Origin: Hanleya hanleyi
Lineage: Eukaryota; Mollusca; Polyplacophora; Lepidopleurida; Hanleyidae
DNA: 64,000 bases
Direction: 5' to 3'
NCBI GenBank assembly: GCA_036873755.1
Contig: JAVTVY010018858.1
Span: 1 to 64,000 of the forward strand
This document shows positions 1,320 to 64,000 of the stretch, in pieces. The notes beneath the pieces are model-generated. The model ran no database searches. It was given only the letters and a program-made list of their open reading frames with translations, and was not told the origin of the DNA. The position numbers and the translations under genes were made by a program. Each line of letters opens with the position of its first letter. Within the stretch, counting starts at the first letter, position 1.

Positions 1320-4300
1320 CTGTATAACACCTGTCTCATTATTGGCCATCATCAAGGTGATCATACAGGTGTTAGGTCTGATAGCTGATATGATGTCATC
1401 AACTTCCACGCTTCCTGTTCTTTTAGAAGCTGATACATAGGTCACTTCTGTAAGAAAACAGATCAAATCTATTAAGCTTGTGGGAAGATTTCTTAAGTTT
1501 TCATTTATCAAAATGCATGTAAATCACTTTGGAACAATTCCCACCATCATGTAGTTGAAGAATGGGGAAGTAATTTGAGCTGATCTGTGAGAGTTTAACT
1601 TTTTATTCTCTTAGATAAACTTCTGCATATATATTTCCATTTAGGTGTAATATTTTATGTGCCTGTATACAGACTGATGTGTGACAGTAGATAATGATGT
1701 GTGACAGTATGCAGACTAACAATGTGTGACACAGCATGCAAGGCTGACAATGTTTGACACAGTATACAGATTGATGTGTGAGAGAGTAGCTAATGACATG
1801 TGACACAGCATGCAGACTGATGATGTGTGACACAGCATGCAAGGCTGACACTGTGTGACACAGTATACAGGAGTGAGTGAGTGTGACATAGTAGGCAGAC
1901 TGATGTGTCACAGAGTAGGCTAGCTAATGATGTGTGACACAGTATGCAGACTGACGACGTGTGACACAGCATGCAAGGCTGACAATGCGTGATGCAGTAT
2001 ACAGACTGATGATGCGTGACACAGTAGGCAGGCTGATGTGTGGCACAGCATGCAGGCTGATGTGTGACAGAGTAGCTAATGATGTGTGAGACAGTATGCA
2101 GACTGATGATGCATGACACAGCGTGCAAGGCTGACAATGTGTGGACACAGTATATAGACTGATGTGTGACATAGTAGATAGGCTGATGTGTGACACAGTA
2201 TGCAGGCTGATATGTGACAGTAGCTATGATGTGTAACAGTATGCAGACTGACGATGTGTGACACAGCATGCAAGGCTGACAATGTGTGACACAGTATACA
2301 GACTGATGATGTGACACAGTAAGCAGGCTGATGATGTGACAGTATATGCAAGGCTGACAATGTGTGACAGTATACAGACTGATGATGTGTGACACAGTAT
2401 ATGCAAGGCTGACTGTGTGACAGAATACAGACTGATGATGTGTGACACAGTATATGCAAGGCTGACAATGTGTGACACAGTATAGACTGATGATGTGTGA
2501 CAGTATATGCAAGGCTGACAATGTGTGGCACAGTATACAGACTGATGATGTGTGACACAGTATATGCAAGGCTGACAATGTGTGACACAGTATACAGACT
2601 GATGATGTGTGACACAGTATATGCAAGGCTGACAATGTGTGACACAGTATACAGACTGATGATGTGTGACACAGTAGGCAGGCTGATGATGTGTGGCACA
2701 GTATGCAAGTCGATATGTGACAGTAGCTAATGATGTGTGACACAGTATGCAGACTGATGATACGTGACACAGCATGCAAGGCTGACAATGTGTGACACAG
2801 TATACAGACTGATGATGTGTGACATAACAGGTAGGCTGATGTGTGACACAGTATGCAGGCTGAAGTGTGACAGTAGCTAATTATGTGTGACAGTATGCAG
2901 ACTGACGATGTGTGAGACAGCATGCAAGGCTGACAATGTGTGACACAGTATACAGACTGATGATGTGTGACACAGTAGGCAGGCTGACAATGTGTGACAC
3001 AGTATACAGACTGATGATGCGCAACACAGAATATGGGCTGAAGATGTGTGACACAGTATGGGCTGACAGTGTGTGAGACAGCATGCAAGGCTGACAATGT
3101 GTGACACAGTATACAGACTGATGATGTGTGACACAGTAGGCAGGCTGACAATGTGTGACACAGTATACAGACTGATGATGCGCAACACAGAATATGGGCT
3201 GAAGATGTGTGACACAGTATGGGCTGACAGTGTGCGGCAGCAAGTAGACTGACAATGTGCGACACTATACTGTTTTTTTGCCTTGGAAGTACAAATAAAT
3301 CAACCCAACATCGCCACAAAGAGTTAACATAGGAGAGCCGCAATTTTGATGATTTTCAGTGATATGCAGTATCACGGCCTCTCGCAAAACTCCCATGATT
3401 CATTGGGCCACCTTTGGCGGTTCGACACAGAATGCTGGAGTTGCATTCGCGGCAGTTTGAGTCATTTCCTGACCTTCCAAAATTGTGTCCCTTTGCAGTT
3501 CATCAGTTCCCGCTAGGGGTCGATGTTTTCAACTGGATGCACTTATATACGGATAACCTGCCGTCGATGATACTGAATACATCGTTGGACACTTCTAGTT
3601 TTATGGACTTCTGATAATAAGGATTAGATATCTAATCTATTTAAATGACTAAATAAACATGGACGAGTCTGTCAACATGACAAAGTATAACTGGTCTGGA
3701 CTAGGAAAGAATAAACCAGAAAGAATGTTCTCCTGTATTCTTCATTTAATCCTAAAAACATTGAACACAGAATGAAGCGCTGTAATAATGAAGGACTTAC
3801 CTGCCACCCCTTCATCCTCAAAATGGGAGAGGACCAGTTTAACAGAATCATGTTCAAGGTTGGAGGTGATGAAATGCGGTAAAGTTTTCTGCCCTGAGCT
3901 GATGTTGACCTTCCAGTAATACTTCACCGCAGACCAGAACACCATGTTATTAGCCTGTGTCAAGACAAAACAGTCGCATAAAACATTCATCAAACCTTTG
4001 GGCAACATAAAATAGCATAATGCTCAACTAGGAATCATTTTTATGGGCCCTTATTCAATCTATTACTGATGGTTATTTAGATTAAAATGGATGGATGGGG
4101 TATTCATGAATGATTGTCCCAACAGATGAGAATGAAATAAATGTCTCCAATTTCGGTACTTTCACAACATCAATGTGAATATTCGACTACTATTATCAGT
4201 TTCTGATTCAAGTTGCAGCTTGGCTGGTAATTAATTGAATTTCTAGAGAATTTGTCATCTTACCTCAGTTCCTCCAGAGGTGAATATGATGTCTGAAAAC

Positions 4301-7300: not shown

Positions 7301-10300
7301 CATGATTTCAATTATAGACTGCAGAACAGAGTCGGTAGACGGACTCCGGAAAAAGCCATAAGGAGACATAAACCAAAGACAAATCCGTAAGAGTAGAACC
7401 TGTAGATATGCCGGGATGACGAAATCCGGTTCATACTCCATGAATCACACGACAGTGCATAAAATAGCGAAGTCTGGGGGAAAAAATGACTAGGTGTTAG
7501 AGCCCATCAGCTGCACTAAGACCTAGACAATAGTTTCCCGTGAAGTATCAGCCAAACTCCAGCGGTAACAAGCTACCAGACTGCAGGAATATAAAAACAT
7601 AAGTCATCTATGATCACAGAAGGTTATAATTAGATGTCATACATGTAGACTGAAAAACACTCCTGAAAACGATACAGCGCCCAAACCAGCTCCGGAACTG
7701 CAACGTCTGGAGTGAATCTCAGTACCCATCGGAAAGCGACGGGTGAACAAACGACTCCATGCAACCATCATACTCCAGGGAGTGGAAGAAAAATTACGTG
7801 GAACGATGGGATGACACCTGAACAACCCGAGAGATCGTTCTAGAAGAAAAGCTGGCAGAAGGAGTAGCAGCGGCCGAGGAATGAGTCCTTCAGCCAGATT
7901 ACGCCCAAACGTACGCAAAACGCTGCCAAGACAGGTGGAATCGTAGTATGAGAAATAACAATCAGAAACAAAAAGTCGCTGAAATTACTCATAAATGAAG
8001 CATTCTACGAGTATAACAGTCACCCGGTCGTAAGAACCTGATAGAGAGTCCGACATACCGGAAACGTGATAAACTCGTAGCGACGATCCCTAAAAGCAGG
8101 AGCAACAGGGGAAACAAAACACAGTTCCCCGTGCTTGTTATGAAGGACAAAAGCTATGATAATGTCTGACACAACACAAGCGTAGGTTATTGAGAATTAG
8201 TTGACTTCCGCTGTAACGAGAGGAGTGTCAATTCTCGAACCAAAAATGTTCTCCAGCCCTCCTCGACGCAGTCTTACAAGACTGGCTGAGACGGAGGAAG
8301 AAACACCGGTCAAAAAGTTCTCCGATAAAAGTAGTGCAGTACCGGTGAGATTTGACCTCCAAAAACGATATAGGTGCGTACTGGGCCGAACACAACAACG
8401 CCACCGCAAAGATACCTCAGTGTCGGAAGAAAAGAACAGCAACACTACCGCCGGAATGAAGGCTCTTCCATCTATTCATCCACTAGAAGAGGAAAATAGA
8501 TTCTGTGCTTACACTGCAGGTAATACAGAAACTGAAAAAGTCCGGGGTAGCTCGGTAAGTGACAAAGGTCATGGAAACCGAAGGAGTATCCTTCAGCATA
8601 CAAACCCGTACATGTTGCTGAACTACTCCACAGCAAACTGAAGGAAACGATGACGAAGCGACGCAGCCTCATACACCACTCTGGATACTCACGTAAAAGA
8701 CGGAACCGACCAGGTCAGTCAAATCCGAATTAGCCCTCCTCGTATAGGAAGAACGGAAATGAGGAAGCCAGGAGTAGTGTATAGCAGCGACAGGGAAGTA
8801 ACCTCAAGAAGAATAGCTAGAACGTAGTTTCTTCTAGTCACGTAACATCGAAGATGGTGTCCCCAAGCCGCGGTGTTAGACTACGTCGCCAAGAAGTCAG
8901 TCATCAATTCCACATTCTCTACCAGAAGTAAAGAAGATAAGGGAATGCGATTAAACATGAAAGGGTTCGAAGAAGCCAATCCGTGTTAAGCAGAATCAGA
9001 TAACTAGTTCTGATGTTACTGACCGGAGTAATCGCAAACCCATGACGATCTGTGCATGCAAGAAGGCGAGTCGAAACAGGTCTTCCTAAAAGGTTCACTA
9101 AAGCACAGTCGAAGTGGAATACGAAGAGGATCAACCAAAATCCGCGAGGGAAGAAACCGTAGAAAATCTCTCCTCGTTTCATTAAGATGACCAACTCGGG
9201 GAGCATTGTCAGAATTTTTGGAGTATAGATGAGACGTACAACTAGTTGAACGAAACAAACCCAAAACGTTTGGATCAAACGAATCGATCCAAATTCTGAC
9301 AAAAAAACCCATATCCGGTGATGATGCTCCCATGACGCAACAGCAACACCCAACCCTCACGGCCTACATAAATCATATGGGTCAACGAGGAACCGGCAAG
9401 GACGGTAAAGGAAAGCGCATGCGCGACCCTCGTTAAAACCCCAAGATAAATGTAAAACTGACCGGATGACCCGGATGAGGCTGTGACACTACAAAATGAG
9501 TTATATTCCGGAGTGGAATAGAATTCATAGTGTCTAGCTGCAAAATAATACAACAATGTATCAACTTCCAAGTTGATAAAAGTTGTAGACAAGAAAGAAT
9601 GCTCTATGTAAGATAGGCAGAACTTCAGGCAGCTAGATATACGAATAAACCACCAGTGATCTCGGAACGGTAATAATAAAAATAGACCGAAGTACCGTTA
9701 TAAAGGTTTTATACGAAACGTATAAAAACTAAACAGACGAGACACAGAGGTGGAAATTCGTCAAAGCGGAAACCGTTGAAGCAAATAATGGAGTGAAATA
9801 TCCTAATGCATAAACAGTTCCGTAGTGACCAACGTAAGCGTTTGCACGGTCGAAACCAATACGTAAAACGTATACGATGATCAGATGTCTTCACAACTTA
9901 CGATAGTAAGTTAAAGAGTGAACGAACGGAAATAACAAGTGCCCCAGGGGCTATAACCGACGAGCACAAATTGAAGACGAGTTACTCTCAATAGCTGCGT
10001 AATTATCACCAAAAAGTTGATAAAATGGATCAGCAACATCATGGTGACATAATCTGTACTTCCTCACCGGACGTGACAGAAACTGTTGAGAGTTAGCCGG
10101 CCTAACTGGGTATTTAGGCCGGAGACGCAGATGCACGACAACCAGTGCCTGAAAAGGATAGGATAAAAACGATACCCTATGCCTAACAGGACCGAAATGG
10201 AAGATAAGATCTGCATAACCGGAAGTAGTCGAATGTGATGTCAGACCAGACTGACTGATAACATTCAACGTTGCCGGACGTGGAGAAGCAACCGAGACAA

Positions 10301-13300
10301 TAGCATACGATGAACCCTGTAGCGCCACCCCTCCCTTTCTTCCGTAACGGGGGGATACAAGGCGGAGTAGGCCAGTTATTCTTATCGTAGAATAAACAGC
10401 CCGATAAAGTAGGCATTTATTCTTTATCGTAGAATAAATAGCTCGGTGATACATCGTATCATGTCAGTAAAATCGGAAGCTGATGCCACGTAAATTGAAA
10501 CATGCGCCGCAGATAGCTAGGCCGCAACTGCGGGCATGTAACCTTAACTTCCACGTCTCAGAATCGGTGCGTGGTACATACGTTGAATACCTCACGGACT
10601 GACGAGAACGTAAGAAACACCCGTAGAGTGGGACATAACATGATAAGTCACACGACGAGGTACATAAGTGGAAGTAACTGCAGCCGTAGACGAAGCTTCC
10701 ACAGAAACAAAAGTGGAAGACCCGTGATATAACGATGATACCGGAAGGTATGTAGATACCGGGAGGTACAACGTTAATGGTTGCACCATCCGATGAAATC
10801 GGAATAAACGCATACCGAAAGACGGGCCTACGTTGTTCCAGTACCGGTTTAACAGAATGAGGGGGCGCTGACGATGTAATACGTAGCAGAGCCCTCGATA
10901 AGTTCAGCACATTCAATAAAGAACGGCGAATTTCTGTAAACCGCAGCCCCCACAATTCACCTCAGCAATTCTTTGCCGAGGTAAATGCCGTGGCACAATC
11001 AGTTCACCTCCGCAATATTTACATGGAATATTTATTATTGCCGAGGTGACCTTTCTGAATTGTGAGGGCTGAAAACCGGAACCTGGAGTAATAACGACCG
11101 AGTGGTGTTATTACGTGTAGGTGCAATAGTAAAGGTAGCTTGCGCTAGCACAGAAGCTTAAGTACCATTACAAAACGACAATACCGCAAAGTATGTAGAT
11201 ATTGGAAGGTATGACGTTAATGATTGCACGATGCATAAGTAAAGGTAGGTTGCGCTGTAGTAGATGCGGCAGTACCGTTACTAATACAACAATGATACCT
11301 GAGGGTGTGAAGATCCCGTATGGTATAATGTTGTTGGTTGCATATGAGTGTCCGATAAAATCGGACGTGACGTACGTCGTAGATTGATATTGTATATCAG
11401 TCGATGCATAAGTAAAGGTAGGTTGCGCAGATGCTGCAGTACCATTACTAATACAACAATGATACCTGAGGGTGTGAAGATCCCGTATGGTATGATGTTG
11501 TTGGTTGCATATGAGTGTCCGACGTAGGTTGATATTGTATATCAGATGGTGCATAAGTAATGGTAGGTTGCGCCAATGCTGCAGTACCAATACTTTGCAT
11601 GCATCTATCCACAGTGGCTGGGATAGATGCAGATTGATATAGAATATCAGTAGATGCACAAGTAAAGGTAGGTTGCGCCAATGCTGCAGTACCAATACTT
11701 GACGAAACTACCGGCATGTAACAAGATACAGTAGGGTAATTCGAATGCATATATCTATCCACAGAGGCTGGGATAGACGCAGACCGTGCGGGTCTACGAT
11801 AATCCGGTCCCGATATGACAGACTGTGAAGGTCCTGACTTTAGCAGATGAACAGGCGCCCTCGATAAATTCGGCACGTTCCTTAATAGGGAACGGCTATA
11901 GTCTACATAATCGGGGGCCGGATTATTACCAACAGATGTGTTTATAGATGCAGCAGTCGTCGGAAACGAACTGCGCTGATTGGTTGTTAATTTATGTAAT
12001 GACGAATCCTAACAGGGACATTAGTCACAAACTCCGAACTTACCATTCCGTATTGAGAGCCCGATGTCGGAATTGACGTCGTGGTTGAAAGGTCCAAGGT
12101 GGCCGTCAAGGTGAAGGTCGTCTGATTGTTGACATGACGACCGCCATCTTGTTCCCCCAACCCGGCCGTAACAATATCGGAATTAGTGGGTGGTGGAGAT
12201 ACATTAACAACCTCCGGAAAATTAACGCGAGCCGAAAGAGCCGAAATGGAATTCGCAACGGACATTACTACCGAGCCTTGTATCTCCGACCCATTCCCGA
12301 AAGACTGAGGCGGAGATACGACCAAATTCTCGGCCCCGGTAAAGCCGGGCGGCGGCATAATTTCACCAGCATATGAGCCGACAAGATACTCTAAAATATA
12401 TTGTCGGGCCACGTTTCACATTCATCACACTTTGCGTACTGGTCGCACCAAACCCCCCGGCACGGAGGACAGGCGGAATGGGGATCTGTAGTCGGTTTGG
12501 ACTTCTCACAAACAATACAGAAAACGGACGCCATGTTGGTTTTTATTTGATTCTCTCTTTGATACTCCCTGATGCGTTGACGAAATCCAGGCCAGTAATC
12601 ACACAGAATCACAGTAAATCCCACGTATACAACAGGTAAATATCCCAGGTAAACAGCCAAGGTAAATATCCAGGTAAAGACGTAGGTAATCCGAGGTAAT
12701 CCAATGTAGAAGTTTAACTTTTTTCCAAGACACAAAGAACAACGACTCCTCCACTACGAGTTGCAATGGGAAGAAAGAAGTGACGTGGTCGGTCACGTGG
12801 GATCTGGGTACTCGCGCATGGGCATTGGGGCAGTACAGGGACTATTTTTATTCTGTGGTAATATATTACAATTAGGCAATCGCGTAAGAACACGATAGCA
12901 AAAAGTATGTGAAGGTAAGTTTAACAGCGCAAGAAATAAGAGTTATTTCTTTAAGCAACAAATATGATCATTCAGCTCCTTTGTTTGCAAAGCTGAAACT
13001 GCTGACCCTAAACGACATTAATTCTGACCTTACTCTATGCCTTGCCCACAAATTTCTCTACCACCCTTTCCTTTTACCGTCTGAATTCCGATCCTACTTC
13101 ACGAGATTGAAAGAAATACACCAGTACCACACTCGTGGCCATGATCTTGACCTATATAGACCCTTTTATCGTACTGACCTTAGTCTGTACACTCCTAAAA
13201 TAAAGGGGCCAAACGAGTGGAATAAATTACCCTCGGAACTGAAACAATGCAAATCTATTTCTCTTTTTAAATCTAAGATACAAACATATTTATTGCAAAA

Positions 13301-27200: not shown

Positions 27201-30200
27201 GGAACTTGATAATGTGATGTCTAGCACTGTAACATCACTTGTCTTTATTGCACCATGTAAGCATCCTGTCTGTGTCTTGTGCACTGTCCTCAGTGTTTTA
27301 TAGGGTGGATGGAGGGCGTCTGGTTCCATGCTGCTTCAAAGATTTCTTCCTCGAAGTAGCAGGAACACAACTAGACTGGGTGGTGCTTAGTTGGTTCATC
27401 GTTAGCTGAAATATTGATGAAAGCGACGTTGAATTCTATTCACTCAATCACTTACAGTCCTCAAAAAATCCTTAAAAAATCTTTGAAGTCTCAACAGAAT
27501 AGCAACTATCCCTGTATTATCATTTGGACCAACCGGTTCTCGTCGGATCACCGAAGTTAAGCAGCGTTGAGCTCGGTCAATACTTGGATGGGTGACCGGG
27601 TGCTGTAGTGGCTGGGCTGATCAGTGTCCAGAATAATAGGAACTGTGGACACTCTCGTGTTCTGGCACATGTAGGCACCGTCGTGATATGACTGAAACAA
27701 TGTTGAAAATGACGTTAAATCCTACTCACTTACTCATTTGGACCATCAGCAGGGCTAAACATTGGAGGCTCATTCATTCATGTGTAACTAGGGTTTTCTG
27801 GATAAAATGTCGTGTTCAGAGATTTTCTTTCGAAAAGTAGTGACTTTCACGAGTTGATATTTTCAAAACTCAGAATAGGACAATTCTGAAATGCGTCTTG
27901 CTCCACATTTCAATATTTCTGGATGTACTGAATGAATTGATCTTTCCAGTGCTCCAAAATGCTGAAGTAAGATGTGTAGCCAATGAATTGTGATGGGTAG
28001 CCAGCCCATTAACCTATGATGCATAGCTATGAAATCCTAATGTGCCTCTATCAAATCCTAGTATGTAGCCATCCAATTTTGTTTTGTTTACCAGGTTTCC
28101 ACGCCTCTTCCCACCATTACCGGAGCAATATGTCGCTGAAAAGACCATAGATGCTGTATTGTCCAATCAGAGACAAGTTATCATGCCACGAATGATGTAC
28201 CTCTTGGTCTGGATGAAAAGGTAAGCAGCAGTTATCAATCAACTATCAACATCTTGTAGAGTGATAATGTGAAAGGTGGATGCAAAGGGTTTCATGTTTT
28301 CATTTTTATGTTCTTCATGTGTTAATCAACTTTCAGCCTGGCTACTTTGTTTGGTTTTATTTGAAGTATTTTGTCTCCTAGTAGCGATAGAAAAGTGCTC
28401 CAAAGTTGGTATCTCATCTACCCTTGTTTGATGCTGGTTTGTGACATCACATCAGACCACCTGGTCGGACGCCAATACTTGTAACATTGTCTTGAAGGCT
28501 GGTTTGACGTGATGTCACAATTAAGGAAAGATAAGCGATGATTCAGCTGAGGGCTCTTCCATGTAAAAAGATGTACCCCCCCAGGAAGGAAAACTTTGTA
28601 TACCCCAACCACCAATATATGCGAATTAATTCTCCTTGCCTCCACCAAGAACAGCAAATAAATGTCCAGTACAACCTGGAAGAGAAGCATTTTCTTTTTT
28701 TCATCATAGCAGCCCACCCACTCACATTTTTTATTTGGAAGGGAAAAGGTACCCACCCATATTTGCCAGCCAGCTACATGTATTGCGCACGCACGGCTAT
28801 TGTTCAAAATGTAAACATAAACAGTCCACGTGAGTATTCATTGACACAGGCCTATCGTCACACTTCCCCTTTGGATTTGCCCAGGACCACGTGGTGTCAC
28901 AATGTACCGTTAATATTTTCAAGAACGCCGTTACAAGACATATTTGCAAGTGATTAGTATTTCGCGTTCGTTGAATACATATTGAATAAAATAATGTCTC
29001 ACCTTCGAAGGTTTGACCCTCCCAAGCCCTCCCGCCTCAACCATTCGCCAACAGATTTACAATCCCAGTCCACCATTTTACCCTGAATTTTCAAGGCTGA
29101 ACAGAAAACCACAGACATATCCGAAAGGAGTAAAGGGAGACCACTCAGCCCACGCCCGTTCTTTGTTTTCAAGGGAAACTACTCCAAACAGCCGGAAGTC
29201 ATCAGAGCGCAGTGAAGAATGTCGAGGACCAGATAAAGCTCGTTTTCCGCGATTTTTCACATCAATTTCGATTAAAAAGGAATCCCTTTCCAAATAAAGT
29301 GCATATTGGTAAAAGAGGGCCCACCCATAGAAGCAATATTTTTACAGGCTTAAACAATCACCAAGAGAAGCAATTTATTACCTGGAGGGACCACCAAGAG
29401 ATTTCTGTTCTGGACAACCCCACCCACCAATATATTATTATTATTTTTTCCCTTCCTGGGGGGGGGTACATATTTTCAAATGGAACAGCCCTGAGCTTGG
29501 GGTACCAACTTTTTAGAAGCTTCTAGCAGAAACACTACTTCAAAGTAAACCAGGCAAAGTAGATTAGACCGATATTTCTCTCATTATTCAACCTATATGT
29601 ATGTAAAATAAAAAATGAAAATATTAAAAACTTTGTATTTCACCTTTAAGAGTTCACCAGTTATGCTCAGAACATAACATGATCTCAACCAGCCAAAGAA
29701 CAATTGTATATGGAAATACTATTCAGAGCTGTACATGAGATTTGAATACATCAGTCCGATCACTAAGTTAGCCACGCTAGTGGGGCTGATGACGATGTGT
29801 GATGTGTGAACTGTTGTAGACTGCTGCATGCTGAAAGAACTATTTATTGTTTTCATAAGCCTGAGAAAAATCTAAAGTAAAGGAGTAAGACATTTAGCAA
29901 CCTCTGTGAGTCTGTGGGAGCCACGCCCACATCAAAGAAATGTGAATCACTCAGAACACTGATCATCATAACATCAGCAGTTAAAGGGATGATTCAGTCA
30001 ATTCGAATACACTTTCGTTGTGAAGGTTTGTACATGAAAATAAAGTGCCAAGTATTTTTTGCCACTGAAGACCGGAAAGTATTATTTTTAGTCATGGTCT
30101 TTATTCTTTATCTTATTTCTGAGCAACTGGGTACTGCCATTTACTTGGTGAGCTTGATGTAATTTGGTGCTCTGAGCATCACCATCAGGTAAAATTGTAA

Positions 30201-47734: not shown

Positions 47735-50588
47735 CTAGTCCAGGCCGTCCCATGCACGGTTATGTCGGTACAAGTCAAACGCCCTCTCATGCGCAGCGAT
47801 TGAGAGCGTTTCCTTGGGAATGGACAACCCGGGAAGGCTGAAGTCTGCTGTCTCCCTTTGTAAGTCTGGCGTGAATAAGTCCATTATGTCTGGCTCTTTC
47901 CCGGTCAAGTCCTGCAGAAACAAATCACAAGCAAGATTATTCTTTCACATTTACTCTAAAACTGTTTGTAACGTTTGTATCTTGGATGTGCAATGAGGAT
48001 GCTTAATTTACACTTGCATGCTTAAAGCATATTTTGTGGTCCATATATATTAGTATGGAGTTTAACAAAAATCTTGCTGCATGATGTCATTCATCTACTA
48101 CCTTAATTGGCTGACATAACATGCCTTTATGATGGAAATTCTTCTGATTCAGTAAGTCAAGGGAAATGATTGAACATGTAGTGTAGTATTTAACTTGATT
48201 CGTGAAGAATGGATCAAATAAATGAGGCAGCTCAGTCATGAAGAAAATATGCAATTGCATGAATACTAATCGACAGAGCTGGTGAATAGGTGAGGAAGGC
48301 AATTGTTTTAAATACAGTAATTCTAAGTGATGATATTGGATTTTCATCCACTGCTAAAAAAAAATCATAAATGGCACTGGACATGCTAGAAGACCCTATC
48401 CAATGACATCCAGATGTCAGCGCCCTTTTGGAGCACCCATCCAGCTTTGTGGACTTGCCAGCTCTAATGTGACATCACTGGTATCACCATCACAGTCCTT
48501 GGTGTTAGTTAACTTAGATCAGGTCCACTTCTGGGCGCTTACAAGACAATGCTCATATGTAGATCATGCAAATAGGAAACTGGGTCCACAGTACATATCC
48601 AATGATCAGATTAGCCATACAGACAGACAATTCACAAAATTAAACATACCGAATATCTTATAGCCTTGCTCACATTAATGAGAATGATAACAAGAGACAA
48701 AATTGGCTTCGATATACGCCATATTTTTGTCAAAAAAAGTGCCTGTGAAGCTATAGTTTAATTTTATTCAGCCTATAATGATACTGGGATCGATTGACAT
48801 GAAAGAATTTTATGTAAAGTTTAGTTCGTCGGAGTGAAACTAAGTAACAATCATAAGAATTTGCCCCAGAAAGCCAAGTCTATGATTCCCAATGAACATT
48901 CCATTCCATATTTATAATATCATATGTATCAGTAAATTGTATACAAACTTTCGACTTTGTGTTTTTCTTTTGCTTGCTGCTGGCGGACTTGACCTTTGCG
49001 ACCTGATCTCGTTCAACCTGTGTGACAATATCATTGACAGGCACCTCCAAACTGACTAATCCTGTAAACACTTCCTGTCTCCTGTTCACCTTCGATGCTG
49101 CCTGCTCCACGAAGAAAAAACAGAGATATTGTTACGAGGATGAACACACTTATTTTCCTTTTTTAGGCGAAATGTTGAAAAATGAACGAACCCTTATTTG
49201 CAGGATTGCCTCTAATCTCTATCATGTTTTTTTCAAGTACATTTGAACTTATGATGATATTTGGGGTTAGAATTATCATGATCCGATCTATTGAATGCCT
49301 TATTTTACCAAAATTCTCATTTTACACAACATCATTGGATATCGGACTCATTTTCTTGCATAACATGCAGGGATCATGAATTTTGGAATGCGTTCATGAT
49401 TTCAGCACAGGCTGCCAAACCAACAGTATTTTTATTTTTATAGCAAAACTCAAATTAGAGCCAGCATTCTGAACTTGAAGGCGAGATTGAACAATCATAT
49501 CAGCATTTTACCTTTTCGTTTATCTCAGTCCGTATAGTTTTAGAACTTTCCAACTTTTTCTTCAAAGCTTTTGCCACATTGGGTCTGTTGGCCTTCAAAC
49601 CTTTCAGTTCTTTACCCACTCGTAATGTGCTGTTGTATTCGGGCCTCTCAAATGCACTTGCGATCAAAATGCCTGTTTCTTCAACAGATTCTGAGTCCTG
49701 AGTGAATGGGAAACTGTATTCAGATACAACAGGTCTCTCTTCCCTTTCTCTAGTAACAACAGCTTGCTTGAAATATCCACTACCTATATCGCTCGTATCA
49801 CTATCCTCATTTGCTACCTCTGAACAGTTATTGCCCTTTGTGGAGCTCTTTGCAATTGTCCCAGGTCTATTTTTCCCTTTCAATCCGACATCTTTACATC
49901 GGTTCTCCGAAGTAAGTACCATTTCAATATCGTCCACTTGACAATTGTTCAGTGTTTTCGATGGCTTCAATGCATTTGATTGGATGGAATACGAATAAAC
50001 TTTTGTTTGCTCCATAAGTCCACCATTAGATTCAGTGTTTGTATCCTCGTTACACACTTTAGGGTCATAATGTTTCTGAATTGTCATCTGCCCTAACAAA
50101 TTCTGTATTTCAGCATCTCCTTCAATGTTCACTATTTCCACACTGTCACTGGGCTTCTTTTCTGGAGACTTCTCAATTTCTGATTCACTGCTAGACTCTA
50201 CGTCGAAACGAACTTTTAGTCCAGCTTTGCCTTTGGTTGTGTCGGGTAAAATGTTTTCATTGGTTTTTAAATTGCTCCTGTGTGAGGGTACTCGTTTTTC
50301 GGGCGTCAGTCCAAGATCTGGATCAGGGGCACATAACTCCGGTCTGGCAGTCGACTTCCAATTTGTGAACAGAGATATCTGTTCTGTGAGCGGTAAACTA
50401 TCTTCATCATCTAATAGCTGAGAAATTTCCAAATCGTCTTTTCCATGGTTATACATGGTGGCATTATCACTAATTGGTTGAAATCTGTATGTCATAGGGA
50501 GGAGGTCAGCTCCCCTAACGACTGGTCGAGGCGGAGGATACAAATGAGGCATCGGCTCATTGCCATGGAAACCGGTAGATGTGGCCAT
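47735..50588 (-). CDS. PPP1R35: Protein phosphatase 1 regulatory subunit 35 homologue (468 aa, 3 exons)
   Basis: In vertebrates a centrosomal PP1-binding protein needed for centriole maturation. Exons: 50588-49512 (359 codons), 49101-48949 (51), 47911-47735 (58 + stop), all phase 0 with GT-AG borders. The conserved C-terminal domain spans the exons: SKVNRRQEVFTGLVSLEVPV corresponds to the vertebrate SKRLFRDLVSLQVP block, DIMDLFTPDL...DFSLPGLSI to the ETLFYESPHLTLDGLPPL block, and the end HERAFDLYRHNRAWDGLD to HRTLRRWEA. A KVRF motif (residues 125-128) fits the PP1-docking RVxF consensus, near the position of QVRF in the human protein. The acidic, Ser-rich N-terminal region is much longer than in human (253 aa in total). 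The start is the first ATG of the open frame, MATSTGFHGN. Confidence 0.85.
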
Positions 50589-60350: not shown

Positions 60351-61322
60351 GCATATAAAATATCGGAACATTTGTGTCCAGTATTGGTGCAGTCATGTTC
60401 CATTTTCAGCTGTTGGAACGTTACACATTAACGTTCCCCCTGAACGTTCTGTTCAGAGGGAATGTTCCTGCCGAACATTCTGGTTTTAGAAAGATGTCTC
60501 ATTACACGGAAGGATTTCCAACTTCAAGAAAATAACGAAGATTCATCTTCATTATCCCCAGATTCACAGAGATGTACGGTAAGTTCCCTAAGTAATCGCG
60601 ACCCTAAGTAAATTCGAAAACAGGCATTTTTCGCCAAGTCACGTGACACTGTTCCCCAAGTAATCGAAAACGTCTCATTCGCGGAAAACCGCTGTCCTAA
60701 CTATTCGAAAATCCCCCATTTATTGTGGTCACGAGATTGATAATATTATGTAGTTGTGCGATGGAAAAACTTCCAGATCAACGAGTTTCCTTAGAATTAG
60801 TATTTGATAAACCTTGCAAACTTTTTGAGCATTTTGAACATAGCCAATTGTAACAACTAAATTGATTTTCATTATTTCTCAAACGAAATGTATCCAATGT
60901 TTTGAACCGCGATTTCTCATGGTCATCAAATTGAGAATATTGCCAGTTTACGGGGACGGGCTATATTAAAAATTGAAATTGAGAGCATACCTTCGATATT
61001 ATACTGAAAATATCAAAATGAAGAACTGGAAGTTACGTTTCATTCGGTCTTAAAAAAATATAATGCTGAATTTTGACCGGACATTTGAACCACAGATTTT
61101 CTTAGTCGCGGGGTAGAGATTTACGATCAACCCCAACCCCAAGTTGCATTAATTTTGGCCACTGTATGCCATGTGCGCCTCGCCCTAAAACCAGAAACGC
61201 GCCTGTTTGGGTCCGACTTCGGATTTTTTTTTTCCGAAGACACGAATGTTGAGATTCCCAGCTATGATACTGAGAACATATTTTGTATTGTTCAGACAAA
61301 AATAATTTAGAAACGCATCAGT
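60351..61322. other. SDHB intron 2, middle part
   Basis: A small hairpin AACGTTCCCCCTGAAC / GTTCAGAGGGAATGTT lies at about 60430-60468. Phrases around TAAGTAATCG / CCAAGTAATCGAAAA repeat near 60580-60690. No exon seen. Confidence 0.4.
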
Positions 61323-61616
61323 TATTTGCGCTGAAAACTTACCTCACTTCCACTCTTTGCATTTCTTGTCTACATGAAATACCACAGTAAGAATTTAAAT
61401 GACACAGTTATCTCCCCTGCTAGTCACCTGATAGCATAGCTACCCACAATTCCACTTCCTTCTTGTTCTACTGCTTCGTAGGGCTGGAAGTAAACATTGT
61501 CAACTCCGTGAAAAAGTGCCTTTTCTAGCGAAACTACTCACAGTTGGATTACCTCAGACGTCTGATTTCCTGCAAGAAGTCCTTTGGGAAGTATTCTATA
61601 AGTTATCAGCGTAAAA

Positions 61617-64000
61617 ATGGCTCAAAATATGTCTCAAATGTCATGCATGTCTTGTGGAGGTGACAAGCCTAGTTATGACCTTCACTCATTGTGTCCGCCA
61701 TGCCGCCAGGGTAGAATCTGTACATGGGACACGGCCTGTGAAGAGTGTATTGTGTGGGCGCCCGGCATATTCCAGGTGTATCTGGCCGGTTCTCTGGCAG
61801 CTAACGAAGGAAATAGTGTTGTTATGCCTATCAATCTCGCCAACGAGACATATGTAGCACAGTCTCCTCGTACTAGTGTAGGCGAGGAGTCTAGGGGGTT
61901 TGTTAGTTCTGTAGCTGGGTCTACGTTAGTCAGCCTATTGGATGTAAATAAAGATAAACAAACGCCCCCCCCCGCTCACGATGCTTCCATTTCAGGCCAG
62001 GCGAAGGGTCAATCAGGTAAGGGATCGACCCGGTGGGTACAAGTGGAAGGAGTAATCGAAGATATGGAATCTGGTACTACGACGACTGTGGAAGTGGAGA
62101 TTCCTATTGAGCGGACGCCTGGATGTGACGATGAAGGGAAATCGGTGACGGACCCAGGCTTAGCGTGGGAAAGCCAGGGGACTCCGATCGCTCGATCGGA
62201 GTCAACTTATGATTACGAAAACTTGGGCAGCACCAGTGAGGGGCCTAATGTTAAGTTTTCATTTGGGTCCGGGGTTGGGAAAATACCTTCCTCGACGCTG
62301 TCGAGGCCTGGACTTCCCGGTCGCTCAGTTACGCCTTTAACTGTTGCTTCCGGTTTGTCTGAATTTCCCCAACCTGCTTCCGGTTACTCTGGTGGCCTTC
62401 CTCGTTCCCTTGCCGAGACGTTTGTGTCTACGAGCCTTCTGGGCCACCAGAGATTAAGGTTCCCGCAACAACGGCAGTATGGTATGTATTCAGGTACCTA
62501 TGATATGTCAAATTTTTTGCCTGTGTCTGAGTTGCGTTATCAAGAACCCTCAATCAGACCAGTTCAAATTATGCGGCATCCGGTTGCTGGTCTACCTTCG
62601 CCCTTGCGTGGCTTAGGTCAGATATCTGCTTCCGGGGGTGTTCGTGGTACGGGACCGGGATTATTACGTATGATGCGTCCTCCTATACGTGCTTCCGGTT
62701 TACGACCTCGTATGCCAGTTCACCGACCTTTACAGTGGCCGTGCTCACGTCCAGCTGGAAGGTCCTTGAGTGTGAACACACCTCGTCAGGCCTTGCTTCC
62801 GGTCCACTCTCAAGTGACTGATCCCACATTGGCTGCCATACTGCGCGGTATGGAACAGCAACGTGAGGAAATGAAGGAATTGAGAGAGATGATGACCAGT
62901 CAATTCCGAAGTAGTACGCCACTGCTTCCGGTTTTGACTGAACAGTCTAGGAAACCGGAAGCTAATTTGTCGAGGACTATGCCTTCCAATACTCCCTCCT
63001 GGCAGGAAGCCCCGGAAGCTATGGAAGTGGATAGGGACCAGTACGGTAGATCTGAATTGAATGAACCTACCAATACTGATCCGGATGCTAGGAAATATTA
63101 TGAGCTTATTTCCGGCATCTATGACTTAATTCCTGATATGCAGCTTCCGGTCCCACATGCGGGGGATATTGAAACTGAATCAGGAGAGTCAAACCGGGTT
63201 ACGAGGTCGGCTACCACGCTTCCGGCCTCAACTGCTATTCATTCTATCTGCCATTTATTCCATAGAACTTTAGCAGAACCCGCTACGCAGGAGGAACGTG
63301 CTATAAGGTTGAGACCAAAAGCTCGCTTCCGCCCTGCAGGATCTTCTGGTCCGTTCCCAGTACAGAAGCCAAACACACGAAGTTACGGCGTACATAACTC
63401 ACCGTTTAGCTTCCGGTCTGCAGAGGTGAACGGCGACTTTCAGTATTTATGCTCTAGCAATACTAAAGTACCTAGTAATCCGGATGTTCCTTGCACGAAC
63501 AAACAGGCCGCAGTACTTGAGGAAACTGCTCGACAAGGAGTGGCGATTACGAATCACCTTGACTGGTTTCTTAAAGCCATAAAGGATGGTTTATTTTCGC
63601 TGTCGGGCGCGGACAGTCAAGAGCAGTTACAGGAGGGTATAAACCTCGTTCTTGACTACCAGAAGATTGCTTCCGGTGCTGTAGAAGATTTACTGGTACA
63701 CAATGCCTACCTATCTTCTATGCTAGTGTATTTAAGGAGAAAGGCCTTCATTCCTTTTATGCATAGTTACACACCGGAAGCTGTAAAGAGGAGTCTACTA
63801 GAGACATCTACGGCTCCTTCTTTACTGTTTGGTGATGCTGTTGCCGAAGTTCGACCTGAAATGGATCGTATAGAGCATGACAGGTCAGTTGCTTCCGGTG
63901 CTTCGTCTAAAAGACCTATGGCTTCCGGGTCGGGTCCAAAGGCGAAGAAGGCTAAGAAGAACCCGCCTAGTTCCAAGGCTAATAAGGGTGCTTCCGGCCA
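61617..64000 (+). CDS. DIRS-like gag ORF, open to the window end (at least 794 codons)
   Basis: The frame is open without a stop from ATG 61617 (upstream context GTAAAA) to 64000. N-terminus: MAQNMSQMSCMSCGGDKPSY then DLHSLCPPCR and CEECIVW, a Cys/His zinc motif shared with the broken gag at 12534 and reminiscent of DIRS Gag / LAP2alpha-type domains (CxxC...DxHxxCxxC). A low-complexity Ser/Gly/Pro middle follows, then a helical segment (MEQQREEMKELREMM), a C-terminal Gag-like domain with VEDLLVHNAYLSSMLVYLRR and RSLLETSTAPSLLFGDAV, and a basic KAKKAKK tail. The octamer GCTTCCGG or its complement occurs 16 times from 62346 to 63997. Function as nucleic-acid-binding capsid-like protein is inferred. 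Confidence 0.82.
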   Translation, partial: MAQNMSQMSCMSCGGDKPSYDLHSLCPPCRQGRICTWDTACEECIVWAPGIFQVYLAGSLAANEGNSVVMPINLANETYVAQSPRTSVGEESRGFVSSVAGSTLVSLLDVNKDKQTPPPAHDASISGQAKGQSGKGSTRWVQVEGVIEDMESGTTTTVEVEIPIERTPGCDDEGKSVTDPGLAWESQGTPIARSESTYDYENLGSTSEGPNVKFSFGSGVGKIPSSTLSRPGLPGRSVTPLTVASGLSEFPQPASGYSGGLPRSLAETFVSTSLLGHQRLRFPQQRQYGMYSGTYDMSNFLPVSELRYQEPSIRPVQIMRHPVAGLPSPLRGLGQISASGGVRGTGPGLLRMMRPPIRASGLRPRMPVHRPLQWPCSRPAGRSLSVNTPRQALLPVHSQVTDPTLAAILRGMEQQREEMKELREMMTSQFRSSTPLLPVLTEQSRKPEANLSRTMPSNTPSWQEAPEAMEVDRDQYGRSELNEPTNTDPDARKYYELISGIYDLIPDMQLPVPHAGDIETESGESNRVTRSATTLPASTAIHSICHLFHRTLAEPATQEERAIRLRPKARFRPAGSSGPFPVQKPNTRSYGVHNSPFSFRSAEVNGDFQYLCSSNTKVPSNPDVPCTNKQAAVLEETARQGVAITNHLDWFLKAIKDGLFSLSGADSQEQLQEGINLVLDYQKIASGAVEDLLVHNAYLSSMLVYLRRKAFIPFMHSYTPEAVKRSLLETSTAPSLLFGDAVAEVRPEMDRIEHDRSVASGASSKRPMASGSGPKAKKAKKNPPSSKANKGASG
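62346..63997. repeat. Dispersed octamer array GCTTCCGG / CCGGAAGC (16 copies) inside gag
   Basis: Exact copies start at 62346, 62376, 62628, 62691, 62795, 62924, 63143, 63218, 63409, 63669, 63891, 63921 and 63990 (GCTTCCGG) and at 62955, 63012 and 63774 (CCGGAAGC). Codon phase varies: ASG eight times, LPV/LPA four, SFR once, PEA three. Spacing is irregular (30-260 bp). CCGGAAG is the core of ETS-family binding sites. None occurs in the first 730 bp of the ORF, and I noticed no exact copy elsewhere in the window. Confidence 0.95.

What the first reader, a model, noticed from the sequence alone, without database searches (positions are those of the whole stretch)
62346..63997. ETS-like octamer array written through a retrotransposon gag gene in every codon phase
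Sixteen exact GCTTCCGG/CCGGAAGC octamers lie in 1.65 kb, where random sequence would give about 0.05. They fall in all three codon phases and both orientations (ASG, LPV/LPA, SFR, PEA), so the DNA or RNA word is what is maintained, not a peptide repeat. The core CCGGAAG is the ETS/GABP site. The array could be an internal enhancer or promoter of the element, a host-factor tether, a copy-recognition or packaging signal, or a silencing nucleation site. I know of no described DIRS feature of this kind.
Basis: partly seen in the sequence, partly recalled or inferred. Interest (0 to 1): 0.88.

Follow-up and report, generated by a model that had tools for sequence, protein, structure and literature searches.

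The report
Family-specific word arrays in DIRS gag
A jumping gene in this genome repeats the same eight-letter DNA word inside its protein-coding sequence, and related jumping genes repeat different words in the same region and reading direction, as if each family wrote its own address label into its RNA.

Summary
In detail: 16 exact GCTTCCGG/CCGGAAGC octamers at 62346-63997, against 0.65 expected in the whole 64 kb. The carrier (e1) is a young DIRS-type retrotransposon: 40 copies, the window's included, at 98-100% identity. Synonymous-codon shuffles exclude protein and codon usage as the cause: 13 sense octamers vs 0.92 expected, filling 13 of the 15 positions that the Gag protein permits. 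Among 30 copies, octamer mutations are private, never shared (12:0 vs 123:82 elsewhere, P=0.004).

Two results speak against the ETS reading. The excess is mainly on the sense strand. Other DIRS families of the genome carry other sense words in gag: TTCCGG(T) in e2 and L045, CCCGGA and/or GGACCC in L048 and L044/L050/L051, ACGGAC in L046/L052/L053. The words fade out before the recombinase end.

Best reading: a sense-strand, family-specific recognition array, probably read in RNA. Packaging by the element's own Gag is my leading mechanism, but it is inferred. Host RNA-binding proteins and ETS factors (whose consensus, recalled, fits the e1/e2 flanks) remain rivals. There is no non-DIRS control and no binding evidence.

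The parts
61321..61474 (+). Left terminal repeat region of DIRS element e1 (element begins GTTATTTGC at 61321)
   Evidence: Inverted match 61330-61474 to contig 67725-67583 at 97%; 61321-61362 complementary to contig 67478-67437 at 100%; 30 of 30 copies begin at this base with different left flanks
61617..64000 (+). e1 gag ORF (continues to contig 64103, 828 aa), Cys-rich N-terminus
   Evidence: Open frame; 33% identical to e2 gag over alignment A1; no Pfam match
62346..63997 (+). Word array: 13 sense GCTTCCGG (62346, 62376, 62628, 62691, 62795, 62924, 63143, 63218, 63409, 63669, 63891, 63921, 63990) and 3 antisense (62955, 63012, 63774), plus one sense TTCCGG without GC at 63110; continues into RT on the contig
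   Evidence: excess over synonymous shuffles; no shared variants in 30 copies
9900..12560 (-). Decayed DIRS gag region resembling the L045 family: sense TTCCG 11 vs 3.05 in dinucleotide shuffles, TTCCGG 4, CCGGAA 0
   Evidence: gag N-terminus by tblastn at 12546-12376; peptide shared with L045; words

Best explanation
e1 is a young DIRS-type retrotransposon whose gag gene and early RT region carry a cis-acting array of a short sense-strand word, (t)GCTTCCGG(t), kept by selection on the nucleotides. Other DIRS families in the same genome carry their own sense-strand words in gag (TTCCGG(T); CCCGGA and GGACCC; ACGGAC). The words are most likely read in the element's RNA by a factor whose specificity changes between families. 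The likeliest reader is the element's own Gag, which would bind many dispersed copies to choose and package its own RNA. Shown: word-level constraint in e1 (and word excess in e2 and L045), predominance of the sense strand, different words in different families, fading toward the recombinase end in e1 and e2. Inferred: that RNA is the substrate, that Gag reads it, and that packaging is the purpose.
For: Synonymous shuffles: e1 GCTTCCGG 13 vs 0.92 (max 5 of 2000), e2 TTCCGG 12 vs 2.1 (0 of 2000); L045 TTCCGG 8 vs 2.2 (0 of 600). Best of all hexamers against null maxima: e1, e2 and L048 0 of 200. 13 of 15 permitted octamer positions filled in e1; permitted positions filled 34 of 73 sense vs 5 of 53 antisense, Fisher 5e-6. 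Family-specific words with reverse-complement hexamers not in excess in the same ORF: L048 CCCGGA 12 vs 2.2, L051 GGACCC 13 vs 3.7, L052 ACGGAC 9 vs 1.8. Private vs shared variants 12:0 in octamers, 123:82 elsewhere, P=0.004. Last 945 nt of e1 YR frame: TTCCGG 0 vs 0.55; e2 YR frame 0 vs 0.42. Only 1 of 14 e1 gag sites is within 2 columns of an e2 site, so sites turn over while the word stays.
Against: Nothing shows binding, packaging or even transcription. e1 has a smaller excess of the antisense octamer (3 vs 0.47, 8 of 2000), and in the e2 RT frame sense and antisense are alike (3 vs 0.91 and 3 vs 0.85). Words are not more unpaired than matched hexamers (0.317 vs 0.356; 0.299 vs 0.363). Clade II words were chosen after being seen; corrected for that, L044 (16 of 200) and L053 (32 of 200) are not significant, nor is L045 (68 of 200), nor the short ORFs L042, L047 and L049. 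Word hexamers were not better conserved than other CpG hexamers in 3 of 18 directed pair comparisons and only marginally so in several others. In CpG columns alone the private/shared contrast is not significant (5:0 vs 31:11, P=0.32).
Confidence: 0.38

Rival explanations
1. Host RNA-binding-protein sites. A host export, stability or splicing factor binds the words in the sense transcript and helps a long unspliced DIRS RNA to leave the nucleus or avoid splicing and decay, as repeated export elements are thought to do in intronless mRNAs.
For: Same strand-specific, phase-free, coding-region pattern. TTCCGG is shared by e1, e2 and L045, whose gags have diverged to 33% identity between e1 and e2, which a common host reader would explain easily.
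Against: Other families in the same host use different words, so several host factors, or a host factor per clade, would be needed. No known factor was matched here.
Confidence: 0.27
2. ETS-factor (GABP-like) binding sites in DNA: an internal enhancer, promoter or tether of the element.
For: e1 flanks GC-TTCCGG-T and e2 flanks (A/G)C-TTCCGG-T match the reverse complement of ACCGGAAGY, the ETS consensus (recalled). e1 also has 3 antisense octamers, a small excess.
Against: Sense/antisense imbalance of filled positions (34 of 73 vs 5 of 53); L045 antisense 0 and e2 antisense 2 vs 1.06; in e2 only 10 of 15 sites have C before TTCCGG; clade II words lack the ETS core.
Confidence: 0.17
3. Signal in single-stranded cDNA: DIRS elements are thought to replicate through a circular cDNA, and the words could guide second-strand synthesis or circle handling.
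For: Strand-specific words; the element has the ITR/ICR anatomy that goes with circular intermediates (PMC3266345 section 10).
Against: Words crowd in gag and early RT and do not cover the whole cDNA; no precedent known to me.
Confidence: 0.08
4. By-product of composition, codon-pair preference or small duplications, without function.
For: For clade II the excess is only about 3- to 6-fold in GC-rich genes and partly not significant after correction. No non-DIRS control from this genome could be run.
Against: Shuffles keep protein and codon counts; several codon phases; similarity between sites stops a few bases beyond the word; recombinase frames of the same elements show no significant hexamer (e1 0.20 and 0.21, e2 1.0 of null maxima); no shared variants in octamers.
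Confidence: 0.08

Closest known systems
Dispersed packaging signals of RNA viruses (review PMC6281560, passages read; parechovirus, enterovirus, MS2 and HBV papers seen in the listing)
   Same: Many copies of a short capsid-recognition motif spread through a coding RNA
   Different: Those are described as mostly stem-loops with a short degenerate motif; here the word is an exact 6-9-mer without preference for unpaired RNA, differs between families, and no capsid binding is known
DIRS1-like retrotransposons (PMC3266345: outline, section 10 and passages read)
   Same: gag, RT and recombinase-like ORFs, inverted terminal repeats, internal complementary regions, NTT terminus
   Different: The passages I read describe repeats at the termini and protein motifs, no word array in gag
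gypsy Su(Hw) insulator array (recalled)
   Same: Repeated protein-binding word inside a retrotransposon
   Different: Recalled as DNA-level, in the untranslated leader and one protein; here inside coding sequence, sense-biased and family-specific
CAR-E export elements of naturally intronless mRNAs (recalled; papers naming them seen in the listing)
   Same: Repeated ~10-nt sense word acting in RNA of an unspliced transcript
   Different: Different word; nothing here bears on export

Membership tests
DIRS1-like retrotransposon | Reverse transcriptase of DIRS type | tested here: met
   PF00078 E 1.2e-23; YIDD motif in the translation; 188 protein homologues at E<=0.001, best named one Haliotis cracherodii 46%
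DIRS1-like retrotransposon | Inverted terminal repeats and internal complementary regions | tested here: met
   145-nt inverted match at 97% and 42-nt complementary match at 100%; 30 of 30 copies start with GTT
DIRS1-like retrotransposon | Tyrosine recombinase | tested here: inconclusive
   PF00589 E 0.26, 11.5 bits, cut-off 27.1; ORF in the expected place
ETS/GABP binding-site array | Consensus (A/C)CCGGAA(G)(T/C) (recalled) | tested here: met
   e1: G at -2 in 17 of 20, C at -1 in 18 of 20, T at +1 in 14 of 20 sense sites; e2: C at -1 in 10 of 15, T at +1 in 14 of 15
ETS/GABP binding-site array | No strand preference | tested here: not met
   34 of 73 sense vs 5 of 53 antisense permitted positions filled, Fisher 5e-6
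ETS/GABP binding-site array | Occupancy by an ETS factor | not testable with these tools
   No ChIP or accessibility data; host unnamed
Dispersed packaging signals | Many sense-strand copies of a recognition motif in the genomic RNA | tested here: met
Dispersed packaging signals | Motif presented in loops of stem-loops | tested here: not met
   Mean unpaired probability 0.317 and 0.299 at word sites vs 0.356 and 0.363 at same-composition hexamers (prediction only)
Dispersed packaging signals | Binding by the capsid/Gag protein | not testable with these tools
   Needs a binding assay

The most novel reading that the evidence does not exclude
DIRS families in this genome each write a private, strand-specific address word many times into their gag RNA, and each family's own Gag reads it: a self/non-self recognition code that lets many coexisting retrotransposon families package their own RNA, with word and reader co-evolving and splitting into dialects as families diverge.
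Probability: 0.25. Interest if true: 0.92.

Novelty: new variant of a known kind. Interest (0 to 1): 0.72.

Why it matters
How DIRS elements choose their RNA is, as far as I know, undescribed. If the words are a cis code, sequence alone would give the recognition motif of each family, and packaging specificity, cross-mobilisation and the evolution of self-recognition could be tested across families of one genome. Even if a host factor reads them, a coding sequence that fills 13 of the 15 places where its protein permits an exact octamer is an unusually clean case of a second code inside a gene.

Tried and rejected
Peptide repeat, codon usage and dinucleotide composition as the source of the e1/e2 word: rejected by shuffles. 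Duplication of longer units: the direct repeats holding the word are 14-17 nt with two or three copies. RNA accessibility: no preference for unpaired words; an 11-bp pairing between the words at 62924 and 62955 was seen by eye and not pursued. Rfam at gathering scores: one match in the window, a 5S rRNA away from the array. Relatives elsewhere: e1 gag, none at E<=0.001 among 7999 candidates scored; RT homologues as proteins only; two viral-contig scans gave no relative. Not answered because the machine was busy: a non-DIRS control with the LTR gag family PF03732, the e3 family search, and fetching 8 e2 copies. So there is no non-DIRS control; the control used is the recombinase part of e1 and e2. 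Literature: 8 searches; two papers opened (PMC3266345 outline, section 10 and passages; PMC6281560 passages), the others seen as listings.

Rows dropped or not independent: of 17 stretches fetched from other DIRS families (12, 5), L043 was cut by a contig end and left out of the gag tests (ORF 198 aa); L054, L055, L057 and L058 are near-copies of L045 (97-99.8%) and L056 is 80-93% like it, so they were not added to the later tests. L046/L052/L053 and L044/L050/L051 are close relatives, so the families tested amount to about six groups. One search used 10 of the 13 ORFs, without the short L042, L047 and L049. The clade II strand test used 5 word/family pairs chosen after the words were seen. 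L055 and L056 also showed sense TTCCGG above expectation (7 vs 1.4; 5 vs 1.27) without reaching significance over all hexamers.

Full report
Where it lies. The window is the first 64,000 bases of a 74,279-base contig of an unnamed 2.48 Gb genome. From 61321 to about contig 67740 lies a DIRS-type retrotransposon, here e1: inverted terminal repeats (61330-61474 against 67725-67583, 97%) and internal complementary regions, a gag ORF (61617-64103, 828 aa), a reverse transcriptase (PF00078, E 1.2e-23) and a recombinase-like ORF whose Pfam match is below the cut-off. The best named RT homologue is from Haliotis cracherodii, 46% identical. A different DIRS element, e2, follows directly; the gag proteins are 33% identical. 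The RT-RH frame of the window's e1 copy holds two stops; its gag is open.

The observation. Three more sense octamers follow in the RT part. In 2000 synonymous-codon shuffles, which keep the protein and the codon counts, sense GCTTCCGG averages 0.92 with maximum 5, against 13 observed; the antisense octamer averages 0.47 against 3 (8 of 2000 reach it). Synonymous codons could spell GCTTCCGG at 15 positions of this Gag; 13 do (antisense 3 of 8). Part of this may mean that amino acids evolved to suit the word, which would itself be constraint on the word.

Selection within the family. 40 copies at 98-100% identity (the window's included) were scored out of 1426 loose candidates. I examined 30, the window's included: each has 11-13 sense and 3 antisense octamers. 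All 30 begin at the same base with different left flanks, so they are separate insertions. Of 128 octamer columns none has a variant shared by two or more copies, against 79 of 2256 others (P=0.02); private variants are at least as frequent in octamers (12 in 128 columns against 123 in 2256). Private against shared variants: 12:0 in octamers, 123:82 elsewhere, P=0.004; in CpG columns alone 5:0 against 31:11, P=0.32. So mutations hit octamers after insertion, but none in this sample was passed on. The copies are those that scored best against the query, which lowers their diversity.

Other families of the same branch. e2 gag has sense TTCCGG 12 vs 2.1 (0 of 2000) and antisense 2 vs 1.06. The flanks differ: e1 tGC-TTCCGG-t, e2 (A/G)C-TTCCGG-Tcc. 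Only 1 of 14 e1 gag sites is within two columns of an e2 site in the protein alignment, which is loose in this region. e3, a decayed relative interrupted by an e1 copy (L041), aligned to e1 at 71% identity, keeps 3 of 10 sense sites intact, has six with one or two substitutions and one with three, and keeps 1 of 2 antisense sites. L045 has sense TTCCGG 8 vs 2.2 (0 of 600) and antisense 0; over all hexamers it is not exceptional (68 of 200 null maxima reach it), so it rests on the word having been named by e1. The decayed element in the window at 9900-12560 (minus strand) resembles L045 and shows TTCCG 11 vs 3.05, TTCCGG 4, CCGGAA 0.

Families of another branch. A search with the Haliotis protein scored 91 of 15,090 candidates; I fetched 17 stretches. 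Families unlike e1/e2 show no significant sense TTCCGG but other sense hexamers: L048 CCCGGA 12 vs 2.2; L044 CCCGGA 12 vs 3.7 and GGACCC 9 vs 4.0; L051 CCCGGA 11 vs 3.4 and GGACCC 13 vs 3.7; L050 GGACCC 12 vs 3.8; L052 ACGGAC 9 vs 1.8; L046 and L053 ACGGAC 7 vs 1.7 and 1.6. The reverse complements of these hexamers are not in excess in the same ORFs. Corrected for choice of word (best hexamer against 200 null maxima): e1, e2 and L048 0; L051 and L052 1; L050 3; L046 4; L049 13; L044 16; L053 32; L042 49; L045 68; L047 182. Also seen: sense CCGGAA, the reverse complement of the e1 core, is mildly in excess in L044 (6 vs 1.9) and L051 (5 vs 1.7); the pentamer TCCGG in L048 (8 vs 4.2, p 0.04); and CCGGA on both strands in L049 (5 vs 1.4; 3 vs 0.9). 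L042 and L047 show nothing.

Strand and place. Of positions where the protein permits the core hexamer, 34 of 73 sense and 5 of 53 antisense are filled in e1, e2 and L045 (Fisher 5e-6); in five clade II word/family pairs, chosen after seeing the words, 53 of 122 and 2 of 40 (2e-6). In the e1 RT-RH frame CTTCCG is 10 vs 1.13 and TTCCGG 6 vs 1.20, with CCGGAA 2 vs 0.40; in the e2 RT-RH frame TTCCGG is 3 vs 0.91 and CCGGAA 3 vs 0.85, without strand difference. In the last 945 nt of the e1 recombinase frame TTCCGG is 0 vs 0.55, in the whole e2 recombinase frame 0 vs 0.42, and no hexamer stands out in the recombinase frames. Sense words begin at nt 732 (e1) and 1069 (e2) of gag.

Conservation between relatives. 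In 18 directed pair comparisons, word hexamers were conserved more often than other CpG hexamers in 15, some of them by a hair (for example L044 to L051 41 of 45 vs 61%; L042 to L052 34 of 36 vs 80%; e1 to e2 6 of 10 vs 10%; but L050 to L044 30 of 50 vs 59%) and less often in 3 (L045 to L056 11 of 21 vs 55%; L052 to L046 27 of 41 vs 73%; L051 to L050 35 of 49 vs 79%). Overlapping hexamers and related pairs are not independent and no test was made. This fits gain and loss of sites around a kept density, not fixed sites.

What it means. For e1 and e2 a peptide repeat, codon usage and dinucleotide composition are excluded. ETS sites fit the e1/e2 flanks but not the strand bias nor the other families' words. 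The common property is a short sense-strand word in gag that differs by family. That points to a reader of RNA, or of single-stranded cDNA, whose specificity differs by family. Gag is the obvious family-specific candidate and selective packaging an obvious purpose; both are inference. The nearest known mechanism is the dispersed packaging signals of RNA viruses (passages of PMC6281560); this differs in having a long exact word without preference for unpaired RNA. My judgements: word-level constraint in e1 and e2 0.95; strand-specific function 0.8; RNA as substrate 0.65; Gag and packaging 0.38.

Limits. One genome, host unnamed; no non-DIRS control, since those searches did not complete; clade II evidence is weaker than that for e1 and e2; no functional data.

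Noticed in passing
G000 contigs C4079, C14223, C18930, C8945, C44141 and others; L001-L008: Tandem arrays of an 18-bp unit of the type GCTTCCGGTGATGACGTC, with the same octamer next to a CRE-like TGACGTC (motif name recalled); apparently unrelated to the DIRS elements.
   Followed up: no
contig C16810:67745-74279 (L009, L010): A second, different DIRS element (e2) follows e1 directly; e2-type gag has 40 scored matches at 98-100% over 660 loose candidates.
   Followed up: partly
L041:1430-3140: Decayed relative of e1 (e3) interrupted within gag by an e1 copy: DIRS inserted into DIRS.
   Followed up: partly
whole genome: 15,090 loose candidates for one DIRS-type RT query, with several families at 98-100% identity: a DIRS-rich genome with recent bursts.
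   Followed up: partly
window 27507-27620, + strand: 5S rRNA match (43 bits, gathering 38).
   Followed up: no
window 49500-50588, - strand: 362-aa ORF with a match to the start of the PPP1R35 C-terminal domain (PF15503, E 4.9e-7); possibly a host gene exon.
   Followed up: no
window 1790-3343, - strand: 517-aa open frame made of a short repeated unit (SVCILCHTLSA-like), probably a minisatellite that stays open in several frames.
   Followed up: no
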